Shown here: piece by piece, positions 30,967-59,834 of the stretch
Layout of the letters: the number at the start of each line of letters is the position of its first letter
Position numbering within the stretch: the first letter of the stretch is position 1
From: Bradyrhizobium lupini
GTDB taxonomy: Bacteria; Pseudomonadota; Alphaproteobacteria; Rhizobiales; Xanthobacteraceae
NCBI RefSeq assembly: GCF_040939785.1
Contig: NZ_CP162553.1
Span: 4,216,001-4,280,000 of the forward strand
DNA length: 64,000 nt
Direction: 5' to 3'
Position numbers and translations under genes: made by a program
Notes under the pieces: model-generated
The model's database searches: none
Told to the model about the DNA's origin: nothing
Seen by the model: only the letters and a program-made list of their open reading frames with translations

Positions 30967-31044
30967 GCGCCCGTAGCTCAGCTGGATAGAGCATCAGACT
31001 ACGAATCTGAGGGTCGGACGTTCAGAATCGTTCCGGGCGCGCCA
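30967..31044 (+). tRNA. tRNA-Arg (ACG) with one extra base in the T-loop; left attachment site
   Basis: Acceptor arms GCGCCCG (30967) and CGGGCGC (31034-31040) pair and CCA is encoded. The anticodon stem TCAGA/TCTGA holds loop CTACGAA, anticodon ACG (Arg). The T-stem GGACG/CGTTC encloses TTCAGAAT, eight bases where tRNAs have seven; the partial copy at 59784 has the normal TTCGAAT. The extra A is at about 31024. Either a read error, or integration left a damaged tRNA. Confidence 0.88.
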
Positions 31045-32604: not shown

Positions 32605-33189
32605 CTAAGCGTCGCGCTCAGATTTCGGATTGTTTGGATCAGAACTAGGCTGGCGGGCACGGGGATTTGGACGCGCTGGTGAATTCACGATTCGCATAGG
32701 AATGTCGAGCCGATCGGGGCTGAAGGAGGAGTTTTCGAGCCATACTGCCACCTGCTCTAGGCCTGACGTGAATTGCTTGATCTTCCGGTACTCGGCGCGA
32801 AAGCTCGCTTCATCAAAAAGGACGCCGGGGGTGTCGAACGACCCTTTCGCCTTAACGGTCATGAAATAAACGGCGGGAGCGTCTTCGCCGATCATGAAAG
32901 GGTCGTGGACAAGCATGTTTCTTACCGTCGAGTAGTCGCCAATATCTCTGAGCAATTTTTTAAAATCGGCCTTCAGGGCGTCCTCTATGCTCGAAATGTC
33001 CACCAATGTTCGGACGATGTTCAACTTCTCTCGAATGGTCAAGTTGGCGCAAACGACAGTATTCATTAGAGCGTCGAGCTTCGTTCCCGCGGAGACGCAG
33101 AGATGGAGCGTTTGCTCCATTTGTGACCAGCGATGAAGGAATTCGCCCACGAGCGCGAAGCTACCCTTGGCGTGTTGGTCGCTGGTCAT
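32605..33189 (-). CDS. HEPN-motif protein
   Basis: 194 aa from ATG 33189. All-helical prediction: FALVGEFLHRWSQMEQTLHL opens the bundle and the segment STVRNMLVHDPF carries R-N-x3-H, the motif of HEPN ribonucleases and nucleotide-binding proteins. HEPN proteins are common toxins and defence effectors. The last 30 residues are Pro/Arg/Ser-rich. It diverges from the 84-aa/GHKL/partner operon (start about 310 bp away), so it could belong to that system. Confidence 0.55.
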   Translation of the reverse strand: MTSDQHAKGSFALVGEFLHRWSQMEQTLHLCVSAGTKLDALMNTVVCANLTIREKLNIVRTLVDISSIEDALKADFKKLLRDIGDYSTVRNMLVHDPFMIGEDAPAVYFMTVKAKGSFDTPGVLFDEASFRAEYRKIKQFTSGLEQVAVWLENSSFSPDRLDIPMRIVNSPARPNPRARQPSSDPNNPKSERDA

Positions 33190-33498: not shown

Positions 33499-33753
33499 AT
33501 GCTAGAAAAATCGGCCGAAAAGGTTAAAGGGAGCCCTGAAAAGCGCAAGAAATTCGTTGAATTGGCTGAGAATCGAACCCGTAATGCGATCAAGGCCATT
33601 CGCGTAATCGCTAAATTGGGTAACCGGTCGGCCTACGAGTACACCGAGGCCGACGTTAAGAAGATCGCAGGGGCGCTCCAACGTGAGATTGATGCGCTCA
33701 AAGCCCGGATGATGCAGTCCGGTACGAAGGATTCCGTCGATTTCAGCCTGTGA
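33499..33753 (+). CDS. Small charged protein heading the GHKL operon
   Basis: 84 aa from ATG 33499, with GGAG 7 bases upstream; the frame is open to 33208 but overlaps the HEPN gene and lacks a better start. The body reads RKKFVELAENRTRNAIKAIR then LGNRSAYEYTEADVKKIAGA and LQREIDALKARM, a two-helix, highly charged protein. From memory, similar small proteins occur beside DNA-modification and ATPase genes of mobile islands. It ends 10 bp before the GHKL gene, which has GAGGA overlapping its stop. Confidence 0.7.
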   Translation: MLEKSAEKVKGSPEKRKKFVELAENRTRNAIKAIRVIAKLGNRSAYEYTEADVKKIAGALQREIDALKARMMQSGTKDSVDFSL

Positions 33754-33763
33754 GGAAGTTGGA

Positions 33764-34822
33764 ATGCCGTTGAATGCCCCTGACCTTTTGACCCGACTGT
33801 CGAGCGCCCGTTCGACCGGGCAGGTGGAGGCCATCATGGCCGGTCTGCCCATCGTGCCGCCCGAGCAATACCAGTGGCTCTCCGACACTGAACGAGCCGG
33901 CAGATGGCAGCCCGGTAACCTGCACTGGGTGCCCGTGGGCCGCGACCGGGGCAATGGCGGGCGCATCAAGCTGGCCGGAGAGCCGATGAACCCTCTCGCC
34001 GAGCGCCTGGTCAATGGCATGGAGGCGCTGATCGAACTCGCCCGGCTGCGCGAGCTCGCGAAGAATCGCGCTGCGGTTATGCCGGCGACCCCGCGCGAAG
34101 CGGTCCTCCGCTACTTCGGCTTCCCGCGGCTCGACCAGATCGAGCGCCTTGACGATGACGAGCGCAAGGCAAAGTCCGCGCTTGCCGACAAGGTGCGCAA
34201 GGACCTCTCAATCAAGCTGGACTTCGAGAAGAAGTCCAAGCAGTTCGCCGTCACCGTGCGCGATCACGGGATGGGCCAGACACCAGAGAACGTGCACCGC
34301 ACGCTCCTTTCGCTCGGCCGCACCGAAAAAGCTGACAAGCCCTATCTGATTGGCGTGTTTGGCCAGGGCGGCTCCTCCGCCTTCTCGATCGCCAAGTATT
34401 CCGTTGTGATCTCGCGTCGTGCCAACGACATCCGCAAGCAGGGCGAAGGTGCCGGCGTCGGCTGGTCCATTGTGAGGGAAATCCAGCCAAAGGGCCGGCG
34501 TGATCCGTATTTTGCGTACCTCGCTGCAGCGGAGGACGGCGGAGTACCAACCATCGCGGAGGCCCATGCCGAGAAGTTCGGCCAGGGCGCGCACTTCTGC
34601 CACATCGCCTATGACTTCGGCGCTTCGGAGTCGTCGATTGCCAGGTTGATGTATCAGTCACTCAACCATGTGCTGTTCAACCCGGTGATGCCGTACGAAC
34701 TGTACGCGCTGAAGGACACGGCGGACCCGATGAAGGGTACCGCTCAGCGCCTTGCCCTGCGCGTGCGCCGGTTTGGTCCGGCAGCGCTCGATAAGTCGTT
34801 CACGCAGCTGCCGGTGGTGTGA
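33764..34822 (+). CDS. GHKL (Hsp90-like) ATPase, N-terminal nucleotide-binding half
   Basis: 352 aa. The Bergerat fold is clear: N-box E80-x3-N84 (AERLVNGMEALIE), G1 DHGMG (167-171) in VTVRDHGMGQTPENV, and G2 GVFGQGG (197-203) followed by SSAFSIAKYSVVIS. The protein stops soon after the ATP-binding module and lacks the transducer and dimerisation parts that large GHKL proteins need; these seem to be in the next gene. Its TGA overlaps a GTG by GTGA (34819-34822), so translation of the two is coupled. Best seen as half of a split MutL/Hsp90-like machine. Confidence 0.85.
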   Translation: MPLNAPDLLTRLSSARSTGQVEAIMAGLPIVPPEQYQWLSDTERAGRWQPGNLHWVPVGRDRGNGGRIKLAGEPMNPLAERLVNGMEALIELARLRELAKNRAAVMPATPREAVLRYFGFPRLDQIERLDDDERKAKSALADKVRKDLSIKLDFEKKSKQFAVTVRDHGMGQTPENVHRTLLSLGRTEKADKPYLIGVFGQGGSSAFSIAKYSVVISRRANDIRKQGEGAGVGWSIVREIQPKGRRDPYFAYLAAAEDGGVPTIAEAHAEKFGQGAHFCHIAYDFGASESSIARLMYQSLNHVLFNPVMPYELYALKDTADPMKGTAQRLALRVRRFGPAALDKSFTQLPVV

Positions 34823-34833
34823 GGAAAATCGCA

Positions 34834-36660
34834 ATGTCTGAATCAGCACTGCAGGCCGAGCCGCTTCTGTTTGATGATCTTCCGGTCCAAGACCTAGGCA
34901 CTATTTCCATCCGCGTGTTCGTGTTGCCGCCGAAGGACAAGAAAGGCGCCGAGAAGCAGGCGGCGCTCCCGCTCGATCTCGAGGCAGGCGAAGAGTTCAT
35001 GCTGGAGAGCCAAGGCGCGACGCCGATCAGCAGCTATCTGGAGGCGAGCCGGGGCAAGCGTTGCGTGGTTTTCTTGGTGAACGGTCAGCGGCAGGAGTTC
35101 GACGACAACACCTTCATTGTGCAGGAACTGGGCTTCCGCTATCTGCGTTCGCGCATGATGATCATGATCGACGTTGACGGACTCGCGCAGGAAGCGATCG
35201 GTCGCCTGATGCAGGGGTCGCGCCAGGGGTTCTATCGCGGCGCTGTGCGGGAAGCCGTCACCAAGCGCGTCGTGGCGACCTTGAAGGGCGACCCCGATTT
35301 GATACGCCTGGAACAGGAGGCGGAAGAGGCAGTTTCGGAATTGTCAGCGGGCGACGAGAAGGTCAAGCAGACGCTCGATCAGCTCATCGAGTCGCACCAC
35401 GACAAGGGGCATTCCTTCGTTGAAGGCATAGGTTCAGCCGGTGACACGCACGGCGGCGACGAACTCGGCTTCAAGACCGTCGTGAAGGGCGGCGTCGTCA
35501 CGCTGTTGCCGCCCGATGTTGGCCAGGCGTCGGACTATCCAGTGCTGACGTCTCAACCTGCTGCGTCGATTATCCGCTTGCGGCCGAACGTGTCGCGTGA
35601 GATCGCCATCAAATCCATCCCATCCGGGCATTGGGCCGCGATCCAGCAATTCACCGTGGAGGGCGACTCCAAGGTTCTGGAACTCAACGTGAAGCATGAA
35701 CGCCTAGAGGACCAGGGCAAGCTGACGCTTCTGTTCAATGAGCCCCAGGACTTCGACAAAGACGAATACCCGGTGCGGGCCAACATTAAAGTCACCGCGC
35801 GCTTCAATGGCATCAAGGAGTCGCGCCGGCTCGAACTTTCCGTTCTGGTCAAACCCGATGCGGACAAGCCAGACCCGAAGCTCTCGGATGATCCTATCAA
35901 GCTGAAGGTCACGTCGCGCCAGCCAGTGCAGGTCCGCCGCGGCGACACTGGGACGCATGTACGTATGCGGTGGGACGGCAAAGATCGCCTGATCACTGGC
36001 GATGATGCGTCGTGGAAGTTTTCAGCCAAGCTGCTGAGCGGCACTCAGCCCGACATCCATTTTTCGGACCCCTCCGCAGGCCGCTTCACCATGCTGGTGT
36101 CCCCGCTCCCCGAGTGGCAGACAGGGCAGCGGCTCACGTTCGAGGTGTTAGCGACGGGTCCAAAGGGCCGTCAGCTCGTGACGTCATTCGACGCTGATGT
36201 TGTCGATCCACCGGAGCCTGCGGTCAAGGAGGAGAAAGCGCCGCGGTTGGTAGATAGCGAGTTCAAGACGGGCTCAATGCGGCGCCCGCCCTACGAGCTG
36301 AAGACGATCACGCGCGACGAGTACGACCAGCCATGCTGGAACTCCGACGAGTGGACCGACGAAGATGCGGGAGCGTTCCTCAAGCCCACCGAGCGCGCAC
36401 CGCTCATCCTTATCATCAATCAGGACATGGTGGCGCTGCGTGAGTTTCGTCAGGCGCTGGCGAAGCGCAACATGGAAAAGGACGTTGAACGCAAGCTCAC
36501 GAAGTACACGTCGCACATCGCCTTCCACCTGTACCAGATGTATCAGGCGACCATCGGGAAGAAAGACGACGACGTGGATGCCGCTGACGCAGCTCGGCGT
36601 GCCGAGGTTCGGCGCGTCGCGCTCACCATGATCAAGCTGATGGATGTCGCCGAGAAGTAG
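34834..36660 (+). CDS. GHKL-partner protein with transducer-like region and beta-rich middle
   Basis: 608 aa from ATG 34834 (GAGGA 8 bases upstream; a GTG at 34819 is possible). Residues 20-140 look like the missing transducer half of a GHKL protein: LGTISIRVFVLPP, then VVFLVNGQRQEFDD (NGQ at 83-85) and RSRMMIMIDVDGL. An acidic helical stretch (150-185) follows, then about 250 residues of beta-strand repeats resembling Ig-like domains (220-450), and a helical C-terminus (RQALAKRNMEKDVERKLTKY). No nuclease motif is evident. It ends exactly where the convergent methyltransferase gene ends. Confidence 0.75.
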   Translation: MSESALQAEPLLFDDLPVQDLGTISIRVFVLPPKDKKGAEKQAALPLDLEAGEEFMLESQGATPISSYLEASRGKRCVVFLVNGQRQEFDDNTFIVQELGFRYLRSRMMIMIDVDGLAQEAIGRLMQGSRQGFYRGAVREAVTKRVVATLKGDPDLIRLEQEAEEAVSELSAGDEKVKQTLDQLIESHHDKGHSFVEGIGSAGDTHGGDELGFKTVVKGGVVTLLPPDVGQASDYPVLTSQPAASIIRLRPNVSREIAIKSIPSGHWAAIQQFTVEGDSKVLELNVKHERLEDQGKLTLLFNEPQDFDKDEYPVRANIKVTARFNGIKESRRLELSVLVKPDADKPDPKLSDDPIKLKVTSRQPVQVRRGDTGTHVRMRWDGKDRLITGDDASWKFSAKLLSGTQPDIHFSDPSAGRFTMLVSPLPEWQTGQRLTFEVLATGPKGRQLVTSFDADVVDPPEPAVKEEKAPRLVDSEFKTGSMRRPPYELKTITRDEYDQPCWNSDEWTDEDAGAFLKPTERAPLILIINQDMVALREFRQALAKRNMEKDVERKLTKYTSHIAFHLYQMYQATIGKKDDDVDAADAARRAEVRRVALTMIKLMDVAEK

Positions 36661-37860
36661 TTAGCGGCGGTGATGGAATAGGACGACTTCCTGGCTGCCC
36701 GGTGTCGTGCCGCGCTGAGCGCTGTACCACCGGCGGCCGGGGACGCTGCGCCACAGCCGTCCGTCAGCTTCTCCCTCAAGTATCGGCAGACGAAATTCGG
36801 TCAGACCGGCTTCTTCCATGGCTTCGAGGTAGCGCGGGAGTTGCCAGTCCGGCGACGAGAACGCCACCATCTGCACCACGGCCGTGTTCTTGTCCGCGAG
36901 CGCGGCGACGGACGACATCGAGCCTTTGATGTTCTCGAAGTAAGTTTGAAGGCCGGGATATTTCCGGTCACCCATCGTGTAGTAACTCGACCCCGCGCCA
37001 TCGAGCTTGTTGGCTATCATGAACGGCAGCGGCGCTTCCTTGCGGCCGTCCACCTGCCAGCGGTGATAGAGAACGTGCACTCCGGGATACGGTGGAGATG
37101 TTACCACCAGCCGAGGTGCGCGCATCGCAGTCAACGAGGCCTCTTGGTGGATACCGATCGCGCTGCGTCGAAAAATCGTGACCGGCTGCCGGCCGTGCGC
37201 TTTCACCGACCGACGGAGTTCGCGCGCGCCAACGACCATATCTTTAGCGGTCTCCTGGAGGGTCTGCCGGAAGTCATTGATGGTCGCGCGCTTACTGCGC
37301 CCGTCGAGCGCCCACTGCGCGCTGCGCAGAACCACACACCGGCCGAATGCCTCAAGGCGCGGCGTACCGAGCATGACTGCTGCGGCAACCGACTGCTCAA
37401 TCGCCTTGCGCAGCCGCCAGCGTGACCTATTGTCGAGGTGCTTGTAGTACCCGAGCTCTTGGTAATCGCTGATTGGTGTGGAAGGTCGATGAATGTCAAC
37501 TAAGGACGCAACTTTGCCGGCCCATTGCTCCAATGTTTCGAGTTCGGCCTCCGAGTAGACCATGCATTTGGCGCTCGCGATGAACTCGGCCAACGAGCTG
37601 ATGTCCACACCTACGGATTCACGGCCGGAGGCCAGCGCCTCCACGAGCGTGGTGCCACCGCCGACATGAGGATCGAGCACAAGATCGCCGGGCTTCGTGA
37701 ACGCCTTGATGGCCGCGCTCGCGAACGTTGGCGAGAAGCGGGCGGGATATTTGTAATAGCCGTGTGTCAGACCACGGACGGGCGAGGGGTCGCGCGCAGC
37801 CGCGACCAGCACGGCTTGCGCCTCGTCGGAAAGCCCCAGATCGTCCCGGTGGTCATACAT
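36661..37860 (-). CDS. DNA methyltransferase, TSPPY type
   Basis: 399 aa. Motif X-like GYYKYPARFSP (34-44), SAM-binding motif I VLDPHVGGGTTLVEA (61-75, usual form DPFxGxGTT), acidic GVDIS (84-88), a 150-residue target-recognition-like region and catalytic TSPPY (254-258). The order I, recognition, IV fits amino-methyltransferases making N6-methyladenine or N4-methylcytosine. The stop codon abuts the stop of the GHKL-partner gene with no spacer, which argues that the two have moved as a unit. No restriction nuclease is found nearby. Confidence 0.85.
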   Translation of the reverse strand: MYDHRDDLGLSDEAQAVLVAAARDPSPVRGLTHGYYKYPARFSPTFASAAIKAFTKPGDLVLDPHVGGGTTLVEALASGRESVGVDISSLAEFIASAKCMVYSEAELETLEQWAGKVASLVDIHRPSTPISDYQELGYYKHLDNRSRWRLRKAIEQSVAAAVMLGTPRLEAFGRCVVLRSAQWALDGRSKRATINDFRQTLQETAKDMVVGARELRRSVKAHGRQPVTIFRRSAIGIHQEASLTAMRAPRLVVTSPPYPGVHVLYHRWQVDGRKEAPLPFMIANKLDGAGSSYYTMGDRKYPGLQTYFENIKGSMSSVAALADKNTAVVQMVAFSSPDWQLPRYLEAMEEAGLTEFRLPILEGEADGRLWRSVPGRRWYSAQRGTTPGSQEVVLFHHRR

Positions 37861-47329: not shown

Positions 47330-48328
47330 TCACAGTAGCGCACCAGCGGCATTTTGGGAAAAAAGTGCTCCATCCCGTACGTACCGCGCGAGCATCGCGT
47401 CGGAAGCGTGCCGAGTTTGCGCTCTGATCTTCCCGGTTGGCACCCCGACCTGCGACGCGCTGGTCGCAAGCCCCGCGCGTAGCGAATGCCCTGAATATCC
47501 AGAGGGATCGAGACCAGCTGCGCTGACGCGCTCCCGGACGATCTCGCCAACTGCTTCGCCGGACAGGCGGCAATCATGGACCCTGCCATGGCGATTAATG
47601 GGTCGAAAGATCGGCCCTTCACTGATGCCTGAGATCGCCAGCCAGGCTTCCAGGGCGGCGATCGGGCACCACCGGCCCCGGCCGTGTGGGATGCCGATTT
47701 TCTGTCCTCGAGCCTCCTGGTCGGATTTTGAGCGCAGCAAATGAAGAATGACGCCCTGCCGGACATGTTCGGCGTGGTCCCGATTTAGGCCGACCAGCTC
47801 GGAACGACGTAACGCGCCCGCAAATCCAACCAGTAGGAGAGCCCGATCCCGGAGGTCCTTCGGCCTGTCGCCGGTTGCGTCGAGCACCTGGATCAGCTCG
47901 GTGAGCAGCAGCGGCTTAGCCTGGTGCTGGGCGCAGCCGTAGGTCCGCTTGATGCCCCTTAGTGTCGCCCGGACGAGCGCGGAGCGAGTTGGGTTGGGTA
48001 GCCCCCGGGCCTCGTGCGCTTTCGAGATCGAGGCCAAACGCCTGACCAGGGTCGCCACGCTCAGCCTGCCAGCGTTCTGGGCGAGGTGTTCGGCCAAGGT
48101 GTCAGGCGATGCGGGGATCGAACCGCCGCTCAGCTCAAATTCCCGCAGATCACTCAGGTACGCCCGGCGGCTATTCTCCGAAACACTGTTTTCGATGAAA
48201 AAGTGGGTCTCTGGAGACAGTTCGGTTGCGCGTGCAACTAATTGCATTGGAAGTTCAAAACGGTCTGCTGGGGCCGTTTTAACCTCCGATAAGTGAATAG
48301 TATCACGGGTTAGAAGCTCAGCTGACAT
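47330..48328 (-). CDS. Tyrosine recombinase (second island integrase)
   Basis: 332 aa. Core-binding domain from about 40 (SENSRRAYLSDLREFELSGG) and a catalytic domain with Arg I (FAGALRRSELVGL), Lys region (LLRSKSDQEARGQKIGI), H-x-x-R (YSGHSLRAGLATSA), the Arg/His-type position in TRHASDAML and the nucleophile Tyr in LARYVRDGALF. All catalytic residues are present. It starts inside the end of the upstream MgsA-like gene (11-bp overlap). Three decayed copies of its 3' end lie at 38-45 kb. Confidence 0.9.
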   Translation of the reverse strand: MSAELLTRDTIHLSEVKTAPADRFELPMQLVARATELSPETHFFIENSVSENSRRAYLSDLREFELSGGSIPASPDTLAEHLAQNAGRLSVATLVRRLASISKAHEARGLPNPTRSALVRATLRGIKRTYGCAQHQAKPLLLTELIQVLDATGDRPKDLRDRALLLVGFAGALRRSELVGLNRDHAEHVRQGVILHLLRSKSDQEARGQKIGIPHGRGRWCPIAALEAWLAISGISEGPIFRPINRHGRVHDCRLSGEAVGEIVRERVSAAGLDPSGYSGHSLRAGLATSASQVGVPTGKIRAQTRHASDAMLARYVRDGALFSQNAAGALL

Positions 48329-57835: not shown

Positions 57836-58408
57836 CTATTCCTTCCCTTTCGGCGGTTCGAGTACTCCGAACTTGAGCCGCCGACCGGCAGCTTCCGTCC
57901 CGGTCAGCTGGCGCCCTACGGAAAGTCCTCTGTAGTACCGAAGACGCTCCTTGCTGTCGGCTAGATTCGCCGACACGGTCTGATAGGATTTTTTCATCGA
58001 TTCGAAGCCGCCCTCTCCGAAACACCCATGCAAGCTTTTTTCTGCCTCATAGCAAGACTCCTCCAAAGTCTTGCCCGAGACGCGACATTGTTCAACTGTG
58101 CTCCACCGTCGGTAGTGAACCATGTCAGTTTTATATGCAGCGAGAGTGTTGCCTGTCTGACCTTTGCCGGTGGTGACGCCTTTCGCCACAAGCGGTTGTA
58201 GTTCATCAATAGCAGCCTCGATCGCCCAATCGGGCAGAACAATCCCACTCTGCAAAGCTATCACGAGAGCATCGAACAGCCCTAGCGGGTTTCCCTCTTT
58301 ATAAACGGCTCTCATTTCCTCTAGTCGCTCGCTTACCCGAAACAAAAACTCGCCGGGAGCGCTCAACTGAAAAGCCGGATCATTGAATTGCTTTTTCTTC
58401 TTGGGCAT
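57836..58408 (-). CDS. Hypothetical protein overlapping the integrase gene
   Basis: 190 aa, beginning MPKKKKQFNDPAFQLSAPGE; helical and charged, with two Cys (EQCRVSG, EESCYEAEK). No family recognised. Its start lies 29 bp inside the 3' end of the integrase gene, so the two are transcribed together. Confidence 0.6.
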   Translation of the reverse strand: MPKKKKQFNDPAFQLSAPGEFLFRVSERLEEMRAVYKEGNPLGLFDALVIALQSGIVLPDWAIEAAIDELQPLVAKGVTTGKGQTGNTLAAYKTDMVHYRRWSTVEQCRVSGKTLEESCYEAEKSLHGCFGEGGFESMKKSYQTVSANLADSKERLRYYRGLSVGRQLTGTEAAGRRLKFGVLEPPKGKE

Positions 58409-59633
58409 GTGGGTTCAACGCGCCGGAAATTCTGGTTGATATGTCTTCAGACGCTCGCCTAAGAGGGCTGGCATCGAGATGGGCATAACGGTTGGTGGTG
58501 GATGGCTGCGTGTGGCCCAACAATTTGCCGATTATTGGCAAGCCAAGTCCAGCTTCCGCTCCATAGGAGGCGAAGCTGTGTCGCAGATCGTGAAGACGTA
58601 CACCTTTCAAATCAGCAGCTCGGCGAAGCACTGACCAAGGTCGTTTTAAATCAGCGCGGCGGCCGTCGCTGCCAGCGATGATGTAGGGATTACCATCGAG
58701 CCGTGGCAAGCTGTCCAGAATGGCAAGCGCGGTCTCAGGCAAGTAGATCGGCTTTTTGCCGGTCTTGCTGTCGGGCAAGAAGAGGATCCGCCGGTCGACA
58801 TCAACCTGGTCCCATTTCGCACTCAGAATTTCTCCTAGACGGGCGCCGGTGAAGATCAGCAGCCGGATTGCAGCGACGGCGAATGGATCCAATGTGGTCC
58901 GACGGTTTTCTTCCCGGGGCAGATGTTTGGACTGAACGTCATTTGTCTCCCATGCGACACCGACCGTCTCCGCGAGTCTCAGGGATTCGCCTAGCCTACC
59001 AAACTCATCGCGGGTCAGAAAACGCTCCCGGCTTCGTTCCGGGTTTTTTTCGATTCCCCTAGCCGGGTTCTCTTCAAAAGGGACTTCGGCCCGCCTGGCG
59101 GCCCAATTCCAGATTGAGGAGAGGAGGGCCAAACAGCGGTTTGCAGCGAACGGCGCGGACGCCATACACGAGTGTAGGCGCGCGACGTCGCTTCGCGTGA
59201 TTTCGACAAGCCGACGACTGCCAAGAGCCGGTAGGATGCGACGGTCTAGGAGACATTGATATTCAATGGCTGTCCGCGGCTTGCGCTTACTGCGCACGTG
59301 ATGGACCATGAAGTCCGCCGCGGCCTCGGCGAGGGTTCTTCGGGCACGCTGTTCGCGGCGTTCCGCGATCGGGTCACTTCCGGTCTCGACAGCACCGAGC
59401 AACTTCTTTGCTTCTGAGCGGGCCTGGTCAGGGGTGAGCCTGCCGTGTTCCCCCAGGGCAATGCGGCGGGATCGGCCGTGCTGCCGGTATTGAGCGTAGT
59501 AGATCTTCTTCTGAGATGGGAATGCTGCCACCCCGAACCCGGAAAGCGCATCATCCCACAGAAAAACGCGGTCTTGTTTTTCCGAACACCTCAGCGCGTC
59601 TACGGATTTTTTTGATATGCGGCCTTGGGGCAT
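58380..59633 (-). CDS. Tyrosine integrase of the island (DUF4102 arm-binding type)
   Basis: 417 aa from ATG 59633. N-terminal arm-binding domain (RVFLWDDALSGFGVAAFPSQ), core-binding domain (about 95-190), and the catalytic domain with Arg in FTGARLGEILSAKWDQ, Lys in DSKTGKKPIYL, H-x-x-R in LHDLRHSFASYGAE, His in GKLLGHTQPST and Tyr in NRYAHLDA. It reads away from the right attachment site 150 bp off, as usual for tRNA-targeting islands. Confidence 0.95.
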   Translation of the reverse strand: MPQGRISKKSVDALRCSEKQDRVFLWDDALSGFGVAAFPSQKKIYYAQYRQHGRSRRIALGEHGRLTPDQARSEAKKLLGAVETGSDPIAERREQRARRTLAEAAADFMVHHVRSKRKPRTAIEYQCLLDRRILPALGSRRLVEITRSDVARLHSCMASAPFAANRCLALLSSIWNWAARRAEVPFEENPARGIEKNPERSRERFLTRDEFGRLGESLRLAETVGVAWETNDVQSKHLPREENRRTTLDPFAVAAIRLLIFTGARLGEILSAKWDQVDVDRRILFLPDSKTGKKPIYLPETALAILDSLPRLDGNPYIIAGSDGRRADLKRPWSVLRRAADLKGVRLHDLRHSFASYGAEAGLGLPIIGKLLGHTQPSTTNRYAHLDASPLRRASEDISTRISGALNPHAQEEKAIQ

Positions 59634-59783
59634 CGGCCTTAATCTCACTTCCGGTAAGCACACGGTAAGCAAGATTCAGCCATTCAGAGATGTGCCAGTC
59701 AACCTTGATCAGACTACAAAGGCTTAGAATAATTCGATAATCCATCTTGAGGAACCTTGAAGAATGCTGAGATCACTTGGTCG

Positions 59784-59834
59784 ATCAGACTACGAATCTG
59801 AGGGTCGGACGTTCGAATCGTTCCGGGCGCGCCA
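59784..59834 (+). other. Right attachment site (tRNA-Arg 3' copy)
   Basis: Fifty-one bases identical to tRNA positions 30993-31044 apart from the single extra A: from ATCAGACTACGAATCTGAGG to GTTCCGGGCGCGCCA. It includes anticodon arm, T-arm and encoded CCA, but lacks the tRNA 5' half, so it is not a functional gene. Confidence 0.95.

What the first reader, a model, noticed from the sequence alone, without database searches (positions are those of the whole stretch)
33499..37860. Candidate undescribed system: split GHKL ATPase plus convergent DNA methyltransferase
An 84-aa charged protein, a 352-aa GHKL ATP-binding protein, a 608-aa partner with transducer-like and Ig-like regions, and a TSPPY methyltransferase are packed without gaps: 10 bp, a GTGA overlap, then stop codon against stop codon. 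Methyltransferase plus ATPase suggests self/non-self DNA marking, yet no nuclease is visible, so the mode of action would be new. A HEPN-motif gene (32605-33189) diverges from the operon and is the only nearby candidate effector. The gene calls are seen in sequence; the defence role is inference.
Basis: partly seen in the sequence, partly recalled or inferred. Interest (0 to 1): 0.85.

Follow-up and report, generated by a model that had tools for sequence, protein, structure and literature searches.

The report
Candidate mobile methylase–ATPase immunity cassette
A soil bacterium's mobile DNA island carries a gene set, found again in distant bacteria and in viral sequences, that looks like an immune system in which one enzyme marks the cell's own DNA and an ATP-driven clamp acts on DNA without the mark; no DNA-cutting part is visible and nothing has been tested at the bench.

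Summary
The genes are real and well described. The four (84-aa protein, GHKL ATPase, 608-aa partner, convergent methyltransferase) recur together, under purifying selection, in Bradyrhizobium, Pseudorhodoplanes, a Hyphomicrobiales MAG and a viral contig; a planctomycete keeps all but the small gene. The "partner" is the transducer, two Ig-like domains and C-terminus of one paraMORC-like ATPase, divided between GHKL and transducer. Elsewhere the same methyltransferase and small gene flank a single-chain ~760-850-aa version: the window methyltransferase is 82% identical to two such loci while the ATPase is 19%. Sixteen of 17 full-length methyltransferase loci sit beside an ATPase module (10 of 11 not already known from an ATPase search). 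Single-chain relatives on plasmids sit near SspBCD-type phosphorothioation genes (3 of 7), DndB (1) or a C5-methyltransferase (1). Best reading: the ATPase is an exchangeable restricting half paired with different DNA-marking halves, a variant of the paraMORC restriction-modification systems predicted in 2008. No searched family model covers it above cut-off; no nuclease was found; the killing step is unknown. The HEPN-motif gene is not part of it. The cassette lies in a 28.8-kb island at tRNA-Arg. Defence and action on unmarked DNA are inferred.

The parts
33499..33753 (+). small conserved charged protein, 84 aa; shared by split cassettes and most methyltransferase-linked single-chain cassettes; role inferred: regulator or adaptor
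   Evidence: pN/pS 0.07-0.32; present in 14 loci including the window; HepT-like Pfam match only sub-threshold
33764..34822 (+). GHKL ATPase half: E80/N84, DxGxG at 167-171, GQGGSS at 200-205 (numbering of P0002; motif roles recalled)
   Evidence: HATPase_c_3 E=1.4e-4, below the gathering score; the named glycines, E80, N84 and D167 invariant in 6 split homologues
34834..36660 (+). S5-like transducer + long helix + two Ig-like domains + helical C-terminus, 608 aa (start at ATG 34834; GTG at 34819 gives 613 aa)
   Evidence: alignment to single-chain homologues; AlphaFold2 model, Foldseek Ig-like hits
36661..37860 (-). DNA methyltransferase, N6-A/N4-C type, motif I (DPHVGGGTT, 63-71) before motif IV (TSPPY, 254-258)
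   Evidence: N6_N4_Mtase 3.1e-13; MTase_II models; TSPPY and D63, G67, G68, T70 invariant in 12 homologues
30967..31044 (+). tRNA-Arg (ACG), target of the island that carries the cassette
59784..59834 (+). direct repeat of the tRNA-Arg 3' end (52-column match, 98% identical), far end of the island
58380..59672 (-). tyrosine integrase of the island
   Evidence: Phage_integrase 2.1e-19, Arm-DNA-bind_3 1.2e-13
32605..33189 (-). HEPN-motif (RxxxxH) gene diverging from the operon; neighbour, judged not part of the system
   Evidence: no match in the related loci searched with it

Best explanation
A mobile, restriction-modification-like DNA immunity cassette. The methyltransferase marks the host's DNA. 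The GHKL protein and the 608-aa protein together make one paraMORC-like ATPase (GHKL + S5-like + Ig-like + C-terminal region) that is the restricting half: it closes on DNA in an ATP-dependent way and acts on DNA lacking the mark. The small gene probably regulates or bridges the two halves. Shown here: the four genes, their co-inheritance, their correspondence to one single-chain protein elsewhere, exchange of the ATPase against the methyltransferase, and the standing of single-chain relatives near other DNA-marking genes. Inferred: defence, action on unmarked rather than marked DNA, and the clamp. Unknown: whether it blocks DNA without cutting, cuts through an unrecognised site (a rival below, nested in this one), or recruits a host nuclease.
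For: Four-gene unit in L012, L015, L010, L013; GHKL+partner+methyltransferase in planctomycete L014. Purifying selection on all four genes. Alignment places the division between GHKL and S5-like part of 755-905-aa single chains. Methyltransferase loci: ATPase module beside 11 of 11 full-length genome loci and 5 of 6 viral-contig loci; leaving out those already known from an ATPase search, 6 of 6 and 4 of 5. Exchange: window vs L059/L061 methyltransferase 82%, ATPase 19%; L010 vs L013 ATPase 98%, methyltransferase 69%, with the drop near the gene boundary. Split ATPases lie on one side of a 100/100 branch, but their methyltransferases as one clade are rejected (AU p 2.5e-20 and 1e-77). Single-chain relatives near SspBCD-type genes in 3 of 7 plasmid records, DndB in 1, C5-methyltransferase in 1; DndB also diverges from the split cassette of L015 (PF14072 2.7e-99). 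Island at tRNA-Arg. Patchy: 8 of 242 genus genomes, own included.
Against: No experiment. No nuclease found by family models, by simple motif search of 25 proteins or in the 50 Foldseek rows shown. Models are weak (pLDDT 61.7 and 50.4). 2 of 7 plasmid relatives have no annotated marking gene in 8 kb, and L075 none recognised in 12 kb near a contig end. In 2 of 8 single-chain genome loci (L062, L064) the ATPase frame is interrupted while the methyltransferase is open. L016 has the GHKL start at a contig end and its genome has no such methyltransferase at 1e-20. Lone methyltransferases exist: L027 and an interrupted second copy in the window's genome.
Confidence: 0.6

Rival explanations
1. Classical restriction-modification with a hidden nuclease (a special case of the best explanation): the C-terminal part of the ATPase cuts unmethylated DNA, as in GHKL-bearing restriction enzymes of the BbrUII/HgiDII family.
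For: Methyltransferase and ATPase together in 16 of 17 loci; interrupted ATPase with open methyltransferase in L062 and L064 is what loss of a restriction gene would look like; NCBIfam holds a BbrUII/HgiDII restriction enzyme family, matched by a different, GHKL-containing protein of this genome (4.1e-16, far below its cut-off); residues 464-581 of P0003 are below pLDDT 50, so an active site could be missed.
Against: P0002 and P0003 do not match that family; no [ED]xK column after the GHKL part is shared by more than 6 of 25 proteins, and no GIY or HKD pattern occurs.
Confidence: 0.25
2. Mark-activated effector (SspE-like polarity): the ATPase needs the mark to be activated and then attacks invaders; the methyltransferase is a licensing rather than a protecting partner.
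For: Single-chain relatives stand near SspBCD-type genes; SspE depends on PT marks (PMC8092258, passages).
Against: SspFGH, also an SspBCD partner, acts on unmarked DNA (same paper), so the neighbourhood does not fix polarity; pairing with different kinds of mark argues against one activating mark.
Confidence: 0.15
3. Not immunity: a mobile-element maintenance or gene-regulation module (addiction or epigenetic switch) that rides on islands and prophages.
For: Island and viral-contig location; a methyltransferase with a killer of unmarked DNA would be addictive in any case; small regulator-like gene.
Against: The wider family stands near marking systems of known defence type (Ssp, Dnd).
Confidence: 0.15

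Closest known systems
MORC/paraMORC GHKL ATPases of restriction-modification neighbourhoods (Iyer, Abhiman and Aravind 2008, PMC2292703; parts 1-2 of 4 of the main section and passages read)
   Same: GHKL + S5 with a C-terminal extension, beside DNA methyltransferases, sporadic and mobile; some neighbourhoods lack helicases.
   Different: MORC S5 motif absent in 25 of 25; no RE fold or TIR domain seen; no helicase among the four genes; GHKL and S5-like parts on separate genes in the window's clade; a specific methyltransferase subfamily and small gene; SspBCD partnership not mentioned in the parts read.
Shedu VcSduA, called paraMORC3 (PMC12137116, passages read)
   Same: GHKL ATPase in anti-phage defence; ATPase site needed.
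   Different: VcSduA carries a DUF4263 nuclease in the same chain; none seen here, and here a methyltransferase is the constant companion.
SspABCD-SspE and SspABCD-SspFGH phosphorothioation defence (PMC8092258, passages read)
   Same: Exchangeable restricting partner beside a DNA-marking module; single-chain relatives stand near SspBCD-type genes.
   Different: The window uses a methyltransferase; the ATPase is GHKL; no SspE or SspFGH name appears in its family searches.
BREX / Pgl (PMC9122589 and PMC4365076, abstracts in a search listing only; type-4 BREX in PMC12839542, passages)
   Same: Marking-based defence; the first abstract says no BREX component appears to be a nuclease; type-4 BREX shares DUF4007 and PAPS reductase with the plasmid neighbours.
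   Different: No BREX model matched the window proteins in the rows shown; PglZ and BrxL were not looked for around the plasmid relatives.
HEF_HK + Response_reg_2 pairs beside methyltransferases (PMC8011034, passages read)
   Same: GHKL proteins linked to methyltransferases; such-looking pairs adjoin relatives L003/L004 and the interrupted second methyltransferase of this genome.
   Different: No HEF_HK match in the window ATPase and no response-regulator-like partner among the four genes.

Membership tests
MORC family (prokaryotic) | GHKL nucleotide-binding motifs | tested here: met
   by alignment; motif definitions recalled
MORC family (prokaryotic) | GhXhhpXXRhl motif in S5 domain | tested here: not met
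   0 of 25 proteins, simple pattern
paraMORC group (broad) | GHKL + S5 + C-terminal extension in R-M neighbourhoods | tested here: met
   neighbours; S5 assigned by alignment and element order only, no S5 structure match obtained
paraMORC1 | sequence membership of the 2008 family | not testable with these tools
   the 2008 alignment is a figure, not held
paraMORC2 | ExxxH in C-terminal part of S5 | tested here: inconclusive
   no ExxxH in the window row, which held gap signs in that script; in L012 only in the GHKL half, none in L014
paraMORC3 / Shedu | C-terminal RE-fold nuclease (E-D-ExK, DUF4263) | tested here: not met
   no Pfam match; no shared [ED]xK column
paraMORC4 | TIR domain | tested here: not met
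   no TIR match in P0002/P0003
paraMORC5 | HxH motif in C-terminal domain | tested here: not met
   absent in window, L012, L014, L015; L010/L013 and 10 single-chain proteins have HxH at scattered positions
Type II restriction-modification | modification methyltransferase | tested here: met
   by sequence; activity not tested
Type II restriction-modification | site-specific endonuclease | tested here: inconclusive
   none found; part of the C-terminus poorly modelled
BREX | PglZ, BrxC, PglX components | tested here: not met
   none among the best 25 of 56 families listed for the methyltransferase nor among the matches of the other four window proteins
Any PADLOC 2023 system | model match to ATPase or partner | tested here: not met
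   only TmtA at 4.1e-4 over 78 residues of GHKL; none for the partner or for three single-chain relatives

The most novel reading that the evidence does not exclude
A nuclease-free bacterial counterpart of eukaryotic MORC silencing: a two-chain GHKL-S5 clamp that reads the absence of a DNA mark, topologically traps the unmarked invader and blocks its replication or transcription without cutting it, and that is mark-agnostic over evolution, serving as the missing restricting partner of methyltransferases and of SspBCD phosphorothioation alike.
Probability: 0.25. Interest if true: 0.88.

Novelty: new variant of a known kind. Interest (0 to 1): 0.63.

Why it matters
PMC8092258 reports that 2,211 of 2,678 sspBCD modules have neither sspE nor sspFGH and names undiscovered restriction partners as one possibility (passage); the single-chain relatives are candidates. 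Prokaryotic MORC-like ATPases were tied to restriction-modification by gene neighbourhood in 2008, and PMC8011034 (2021, passage) still calls the biochemistry of bacterial MORCs poorly understood. A compact mobile cassette with natural ATPase and methyltransferase swaps makes both questions testable, including whether a MORC-like clamp can silence foreign DNA without cutting.

Tried and rejected
HEPN gene as effector: rejected; P0005 finds nothing in the related loci searched, and its resemblance to the L012 upstream gene is one 18-residue stretch at E=0.029.

Division of the ATPase as a sequencing error or pseudogene: rejected for the window's clade, because six loci from different hosts keep two ORFs divided at the same place; purifying selection was measured on five of them. 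L062 and L064 are different: their single-chain genes are interrupted.

False or double rows: L040 (G408) and L042 (G073) look like HtpG by eye and were dropped. L063 is the same contig as L012 by length and genes and was counted once. L065 (G152) holds only fragments of both genes and was not counted as full-length. L011, L023 and L029 are the same viral contig as L010.

Hidden nuclease: family models, motif patterns and Foldseek gave none. The partner profile's one PDB sequence match, an rRNA N-glycosidase at E=0.033, is taken as chance. The second structure job (single-chain L026 protein, 4 sequences) was too poor in the GHKL part to use. The viral and VIA structure libraries were not searched.

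A single-sequence search with P0002 found it in 1 of 60 same-genus genomes, its own, so that search alone would have missed the exchange cases, which the methyltransferase profile showed. One search (P0004 alone, viral contigs) found no relative; the profile found six loci. No relative in the phage records of the two proteins tried there, the Ensifer ATPase and the L039 methyltransferase.

The TmtA literature search listed only unrelated papers. Searches of PMC for combinations of GHKL, MORC, anti-phage, methyltransferase, SspBCD and related terms listed no title or abstract describing this cassette; most subscription journals and bioRxiv preprints are not held.

Script flaw found in checking: in several scripts the stored P0002-P0004 were alignment rows with gap signs. 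BLAST gave ungapped query coordinates and MAFFT realigned the rows, so stand; the window row of the pattern search did not, and most patterns were redone on clean translations of 25 proteins (ExxxH was not).
Full report
WHAT IS THERE. The window lies in a 7.8-Mb single-contig genome. and searches confirm an 84-aa ORF (33499-33753 +), a GHKL ORF (33764-34822 +), a 608-aa ORF (34834-36660 +) and a convergent methyltransferase (36661-37860 -) whose stop codon abuts that of the 608-aa gene. The GTGA overlap belongs to an alternative 613-aa start; homologues start at the position of ATG 34834. The cassette lies in an island: tRNA-Arg at 30967-31044, 52 columns of its 3' end repeated at 59784-59834 (98%), a tyrosine integrase beside the repeat, and G+C of 0.54-0.61 from 32 to 62 kb against 0.61-0.67 to the left.

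FAMILY MODELS. GHKL: HATPase_c_3 at 1.4e-4, below the gathering score. Partner: nothing at E<=0.1 in Pfam, NCBIfam, PHROGs or PADLOC. Methyltransferase: N6_N4_Mtase 3.1e-13 and PADLOC type II methyltransferase models. PDB sequence matches: HtpG/Hsp90 and MORC4 for the GHKL profile, a cytosine-N4 methyltransferase over motif I for the methyltransferase profile. The motif TSPPY and that match lean towards m4C; m6A is not excluded.

THE UNIT IS CONSERVED. IMG/VR contig IMGVR_UViG_2757320695 (L010) holds the same four genes in the same order at 66-70% identity beside a serine recombinase (the latter by eye). One genome-contig scan gave Bradyrhizobium sp. YR681 (L012), a Pseudorhodoplanes MAG (L013), a Hyphomicrobiales MAG (L015), a Phycisphaeraceae MAG (L014: 53/41/43% for GHKL/partner/methyltransferase, small gene replaced by a 207-aa protein) and a Planctomycetaceae fragment (L016) cut by the contig end. 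So 6 of 6 complete split loci (window, L010, L012, L013, L014, L015) have the convergent methyltransferase; L016 cannot be judged locally, and its genome shows no such methyltransferase at E<=1e-20. pN/pS is 0.06-0.35 in all 20 comparisons, five per gene, without L014.

ONE PROTEIN IN TWO PIECES. On plasmids, relatives of the GHKL gene are single proteins of 755-905 aa. Aligned with them, the window's GHKL protein ends and the 608-aa protein begins between the GHKL and S5-like parts. An AlphaFold2 model of the partner (10 sequences, pLDDT 61.7, pTM 0.30) shows an alpha/beta part with a long helix (about 11-187), two beta sandwiches (about 214-339 and 357-457) and a poorly modelled, partly helical C-terminus. 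Foldseek against PDB returns mainly Ig-like and cadherin-like repeats with low TM-scores; I see no nuclease in the 50 rows shown of 1,887. The single-chain L026 protein shows the same order of elements after GHKL, but its GHKL part is mostly below pLDDT 50 and not usable. Split ATPases lie on one side of a 100/100 branch, so one event separates the forms; the tree is unrooted, and a single split is my inference from the single-chain state of the distant relatives seen.

METHYLTRANSFERASE-SIDE CENSUS. Profile hits: 8 of 242 genus genomes, 3 of 289 class genomes, both including the window's own, 2 of 226 genomes of the phylum of L014, and 6 viral-contig loci. Full-length genome loci: window, G645, G664, G720, G725, G751, G771 (= L012), G792, G165, G833 (= L014) and G904; an ATPase module lies beside 11 of 11, split in 3, single-chain in 8. 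Of the 8, G751 and G792 have an interrupted ATPase frame. G904's methyltransferase is distant (33-36%) and one search counted a TGA in its aligned stretch, though a 381-aa ORF is open. Viral contigs: 5 of 6 (L010/L023 split; L024, L025, L026 and, on the same strand and partial, L028 single-chain). Together 16 of 17. Window, G645, G165, G771, G833 and L010 were already known from ATPase searches; without them 10 of 11. Not counted: G152, with fragments of both genes (L065), and the interrupted second copy in the window's genome. The exception, L027, is a 6.3-kb viral contig with a lone methyltransferase between replication-like and structural-like genes; a phage borrowing the protective mark is plausible but untested. 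The small gene is present in 14 loci (window, L010, L012, L013, L015, L024, L025, L038, L039, L059, L060, L061, L062, L064) and not found in L014, L026 and L074 (L028 is cut before that place); L014 and L026 share a different upstream protein (34.5% identical).

ATPASE-SIDE CENSUS. The single-chain profile found two other genomes of 299 in the phylum, G645 and G165, both with the methyltransferase. P0003 found G378 of 289 in the class, whose single-chain ATPase (L041) is convergent with a different N6/N4 methyltransferase. In the phylum of L014 the split GHKL profile found, in 226 genomes, G833 and three single-chain relatives at or near contig ends; for the longest (L075) no marking gene was recognised.

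MODULE EXCHANGE. Window versus L059 or L061: methyltransferase 82%, ATPase 19%; versus L039: 77% and 18%. L010 versus L013: 93-99% DNA identity in nearly all 150-bp blocks through the upstream gene, small gene and ATPase, falling to 59-75% from the end of the partner gene through the methyltransferase; the difference goes on into the recombinase side (52-83%), so the exchanged or diverged block is larger than the methyltransferase. pS is 0.10-0.14 for the first three genes and 0.68 for the methyltransferase. On the methyltransferase tree the split-associated rows need 5 changes, and their being one clade is rejected (AU p 1e-77; 2.5e-20 without the most distant rows; the tree has long branches, and the groups were named after identities had been seen). 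The methyltransferase region 106-245, between motifs I and IV, is less conserved than the rest (51-66% against 75-83% for L010, L012, L015), as expected of a target-recognition region; whether targets differ is unknown.

OTHER MARKING PARTNERS. The seven plasmid records with the single-chain ATPase: Ensifer, Devosia and Hymenobacter carry it near DUF4007 (SspB-like), a large protein at the place of SspC and a PAPS reductase (SspD-like), with a class-V aminotransferase (cysteine desulfurase-like) in the first two (PF13182 9.6e-65 and PF01507 5e-11 for the Ensifer genes, others by annotation); Rhodococcus beside an annotated DndB; Natronobeatus one gene away from a C5-methyltransferase; Pontibacillus and Haladaptatus without an annotated marking gene in 8 kb (the plasmid gene table is incomplete). 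DUF4007 relatives occur in 92 of 72,556 plasmid records, so 3 of 7 is far above a naive expectation. Conversely, only these 3 of the 92 are known to carry the ATPase nearby (60 rows shown); the three closest DUF4007 relatives of Ensifer's (65-71%) are not among the ATPase hits. DndB diverges from the split cassette in L015. The Ssp names rest on homology stated in PMC12839542 (passages); that paper also places DUF4007 and PAPS reductase in type-4 BREX, so BREX-like rather than Ssp-like marking is possible, and I did not look for PglZ or BrxL there.

MECHANISM. The most economical reading is a restricting ATPase half plus an exchangeable marking half. Established knowledge of GHKL-S5 proteins (MutL, topoisomerases, Hsp90) gives ATP-driven dimer closure; the 2008 paper proposed DNA looping for MORC-like ATPases of restriction systems. 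I infer closure on unmarked DNA. The killing step is open: after the GHKL part, the polar residues shared by at least 20 of 25 proteins are few (an N and a Q of NGQ, two D, an R, a W and an NxD pair), to my eye no nuclease pattern, and no [ED]xK column is shared by more than 6 of 25. Polarity is open too, since SspE is mark-dependent and SspFGH acts on unmarked DNA (PMC8092258, passages).

NOVELTY. Predicted in kind in 2008 (PMC2292703); I found no family model above cut-off for the ATPase and no paper on this cassette in the searches named under Tried and rejected. It fails the MORC motif and the paraMORC3, 4 and 5 extras; paraMORC2 is inconclusive and membership of paraMORC1 cannot be tested here. 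I therefore call it a new variant of a known kind. In checking, confidence in the best explanation went from 0.62 to 0.60 because of the interrupted ATPase in L064 and the larger exchange block in L010/L013.

Noticed in passing
L037 10419-11631 (G000:C1 about 4144419-4145631): A second copy of the methyltransferase gene in the same genome, reading frame interrupted, convergent with a 596-aa protein and an 857-aa protein with two GHKL domains (best NCBIfam match BbrUII/HgiDII restriction enzyme, 4.1e-16, below cut-off; HATPase_c_3 and HATPase_c), resembling the HEF_HK/Response_reg_2 pairs of PMC8011034.
   Followed up: partly
L027 4009-5181: Lone methyltransferase of the same subfamily on a short viral contig between replication-like and structural-like genes; possible phage self-protection.
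   Followed up: partly
L010 521-1888 and L013 4937-6304: A conserved gene of unknown function (TIR-like by eye; the L010 copy has no Pfam, PADLOC or NCBIfam match) travels upstream of the cassette in two loci.
   Followed up: partly
L015 5891-6955: DndB-family gene (PF14072 2.7e-99) diverging from a methyltransferase-type cassette.
   Followed up: partly
L064 6769-9075 and L062 1601-3917: Two Bradyrhizobium loci whose single-chain ATPase frame is interrupted while the methyltransferase beside it is open.
   Followed up: partly
L074 5885-6460 and L076 1012-1416: Genes that look PIN-domain (VapC-like) by eye lie immediately upstream of single-chain ATPase genes in two genomes reached through the phylum of L014.
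   Followed up: no
L014 1521-9069: Upstream of the planctomycete cassette: a large Eco57I/PglX-like methyltransferase, a small protein and a RecD-like helicase (all by eye), a possible second defence operon.
   Followed up: no
L003 2324-6699 and L004 9446-13948: A GHKL sensor-kinase-like protein plus a large partner lie beside the single-chain ATPase near the SspBCD-type genes; in L004 HEF_HK at 7.1e-5, just under its cut-off.
   Followed up: partly
window 31045-59783: The island also carries several uncharacterised ORFs and a second integrase-like ORF near 47330-48328 (by eye).
   Followed up: no
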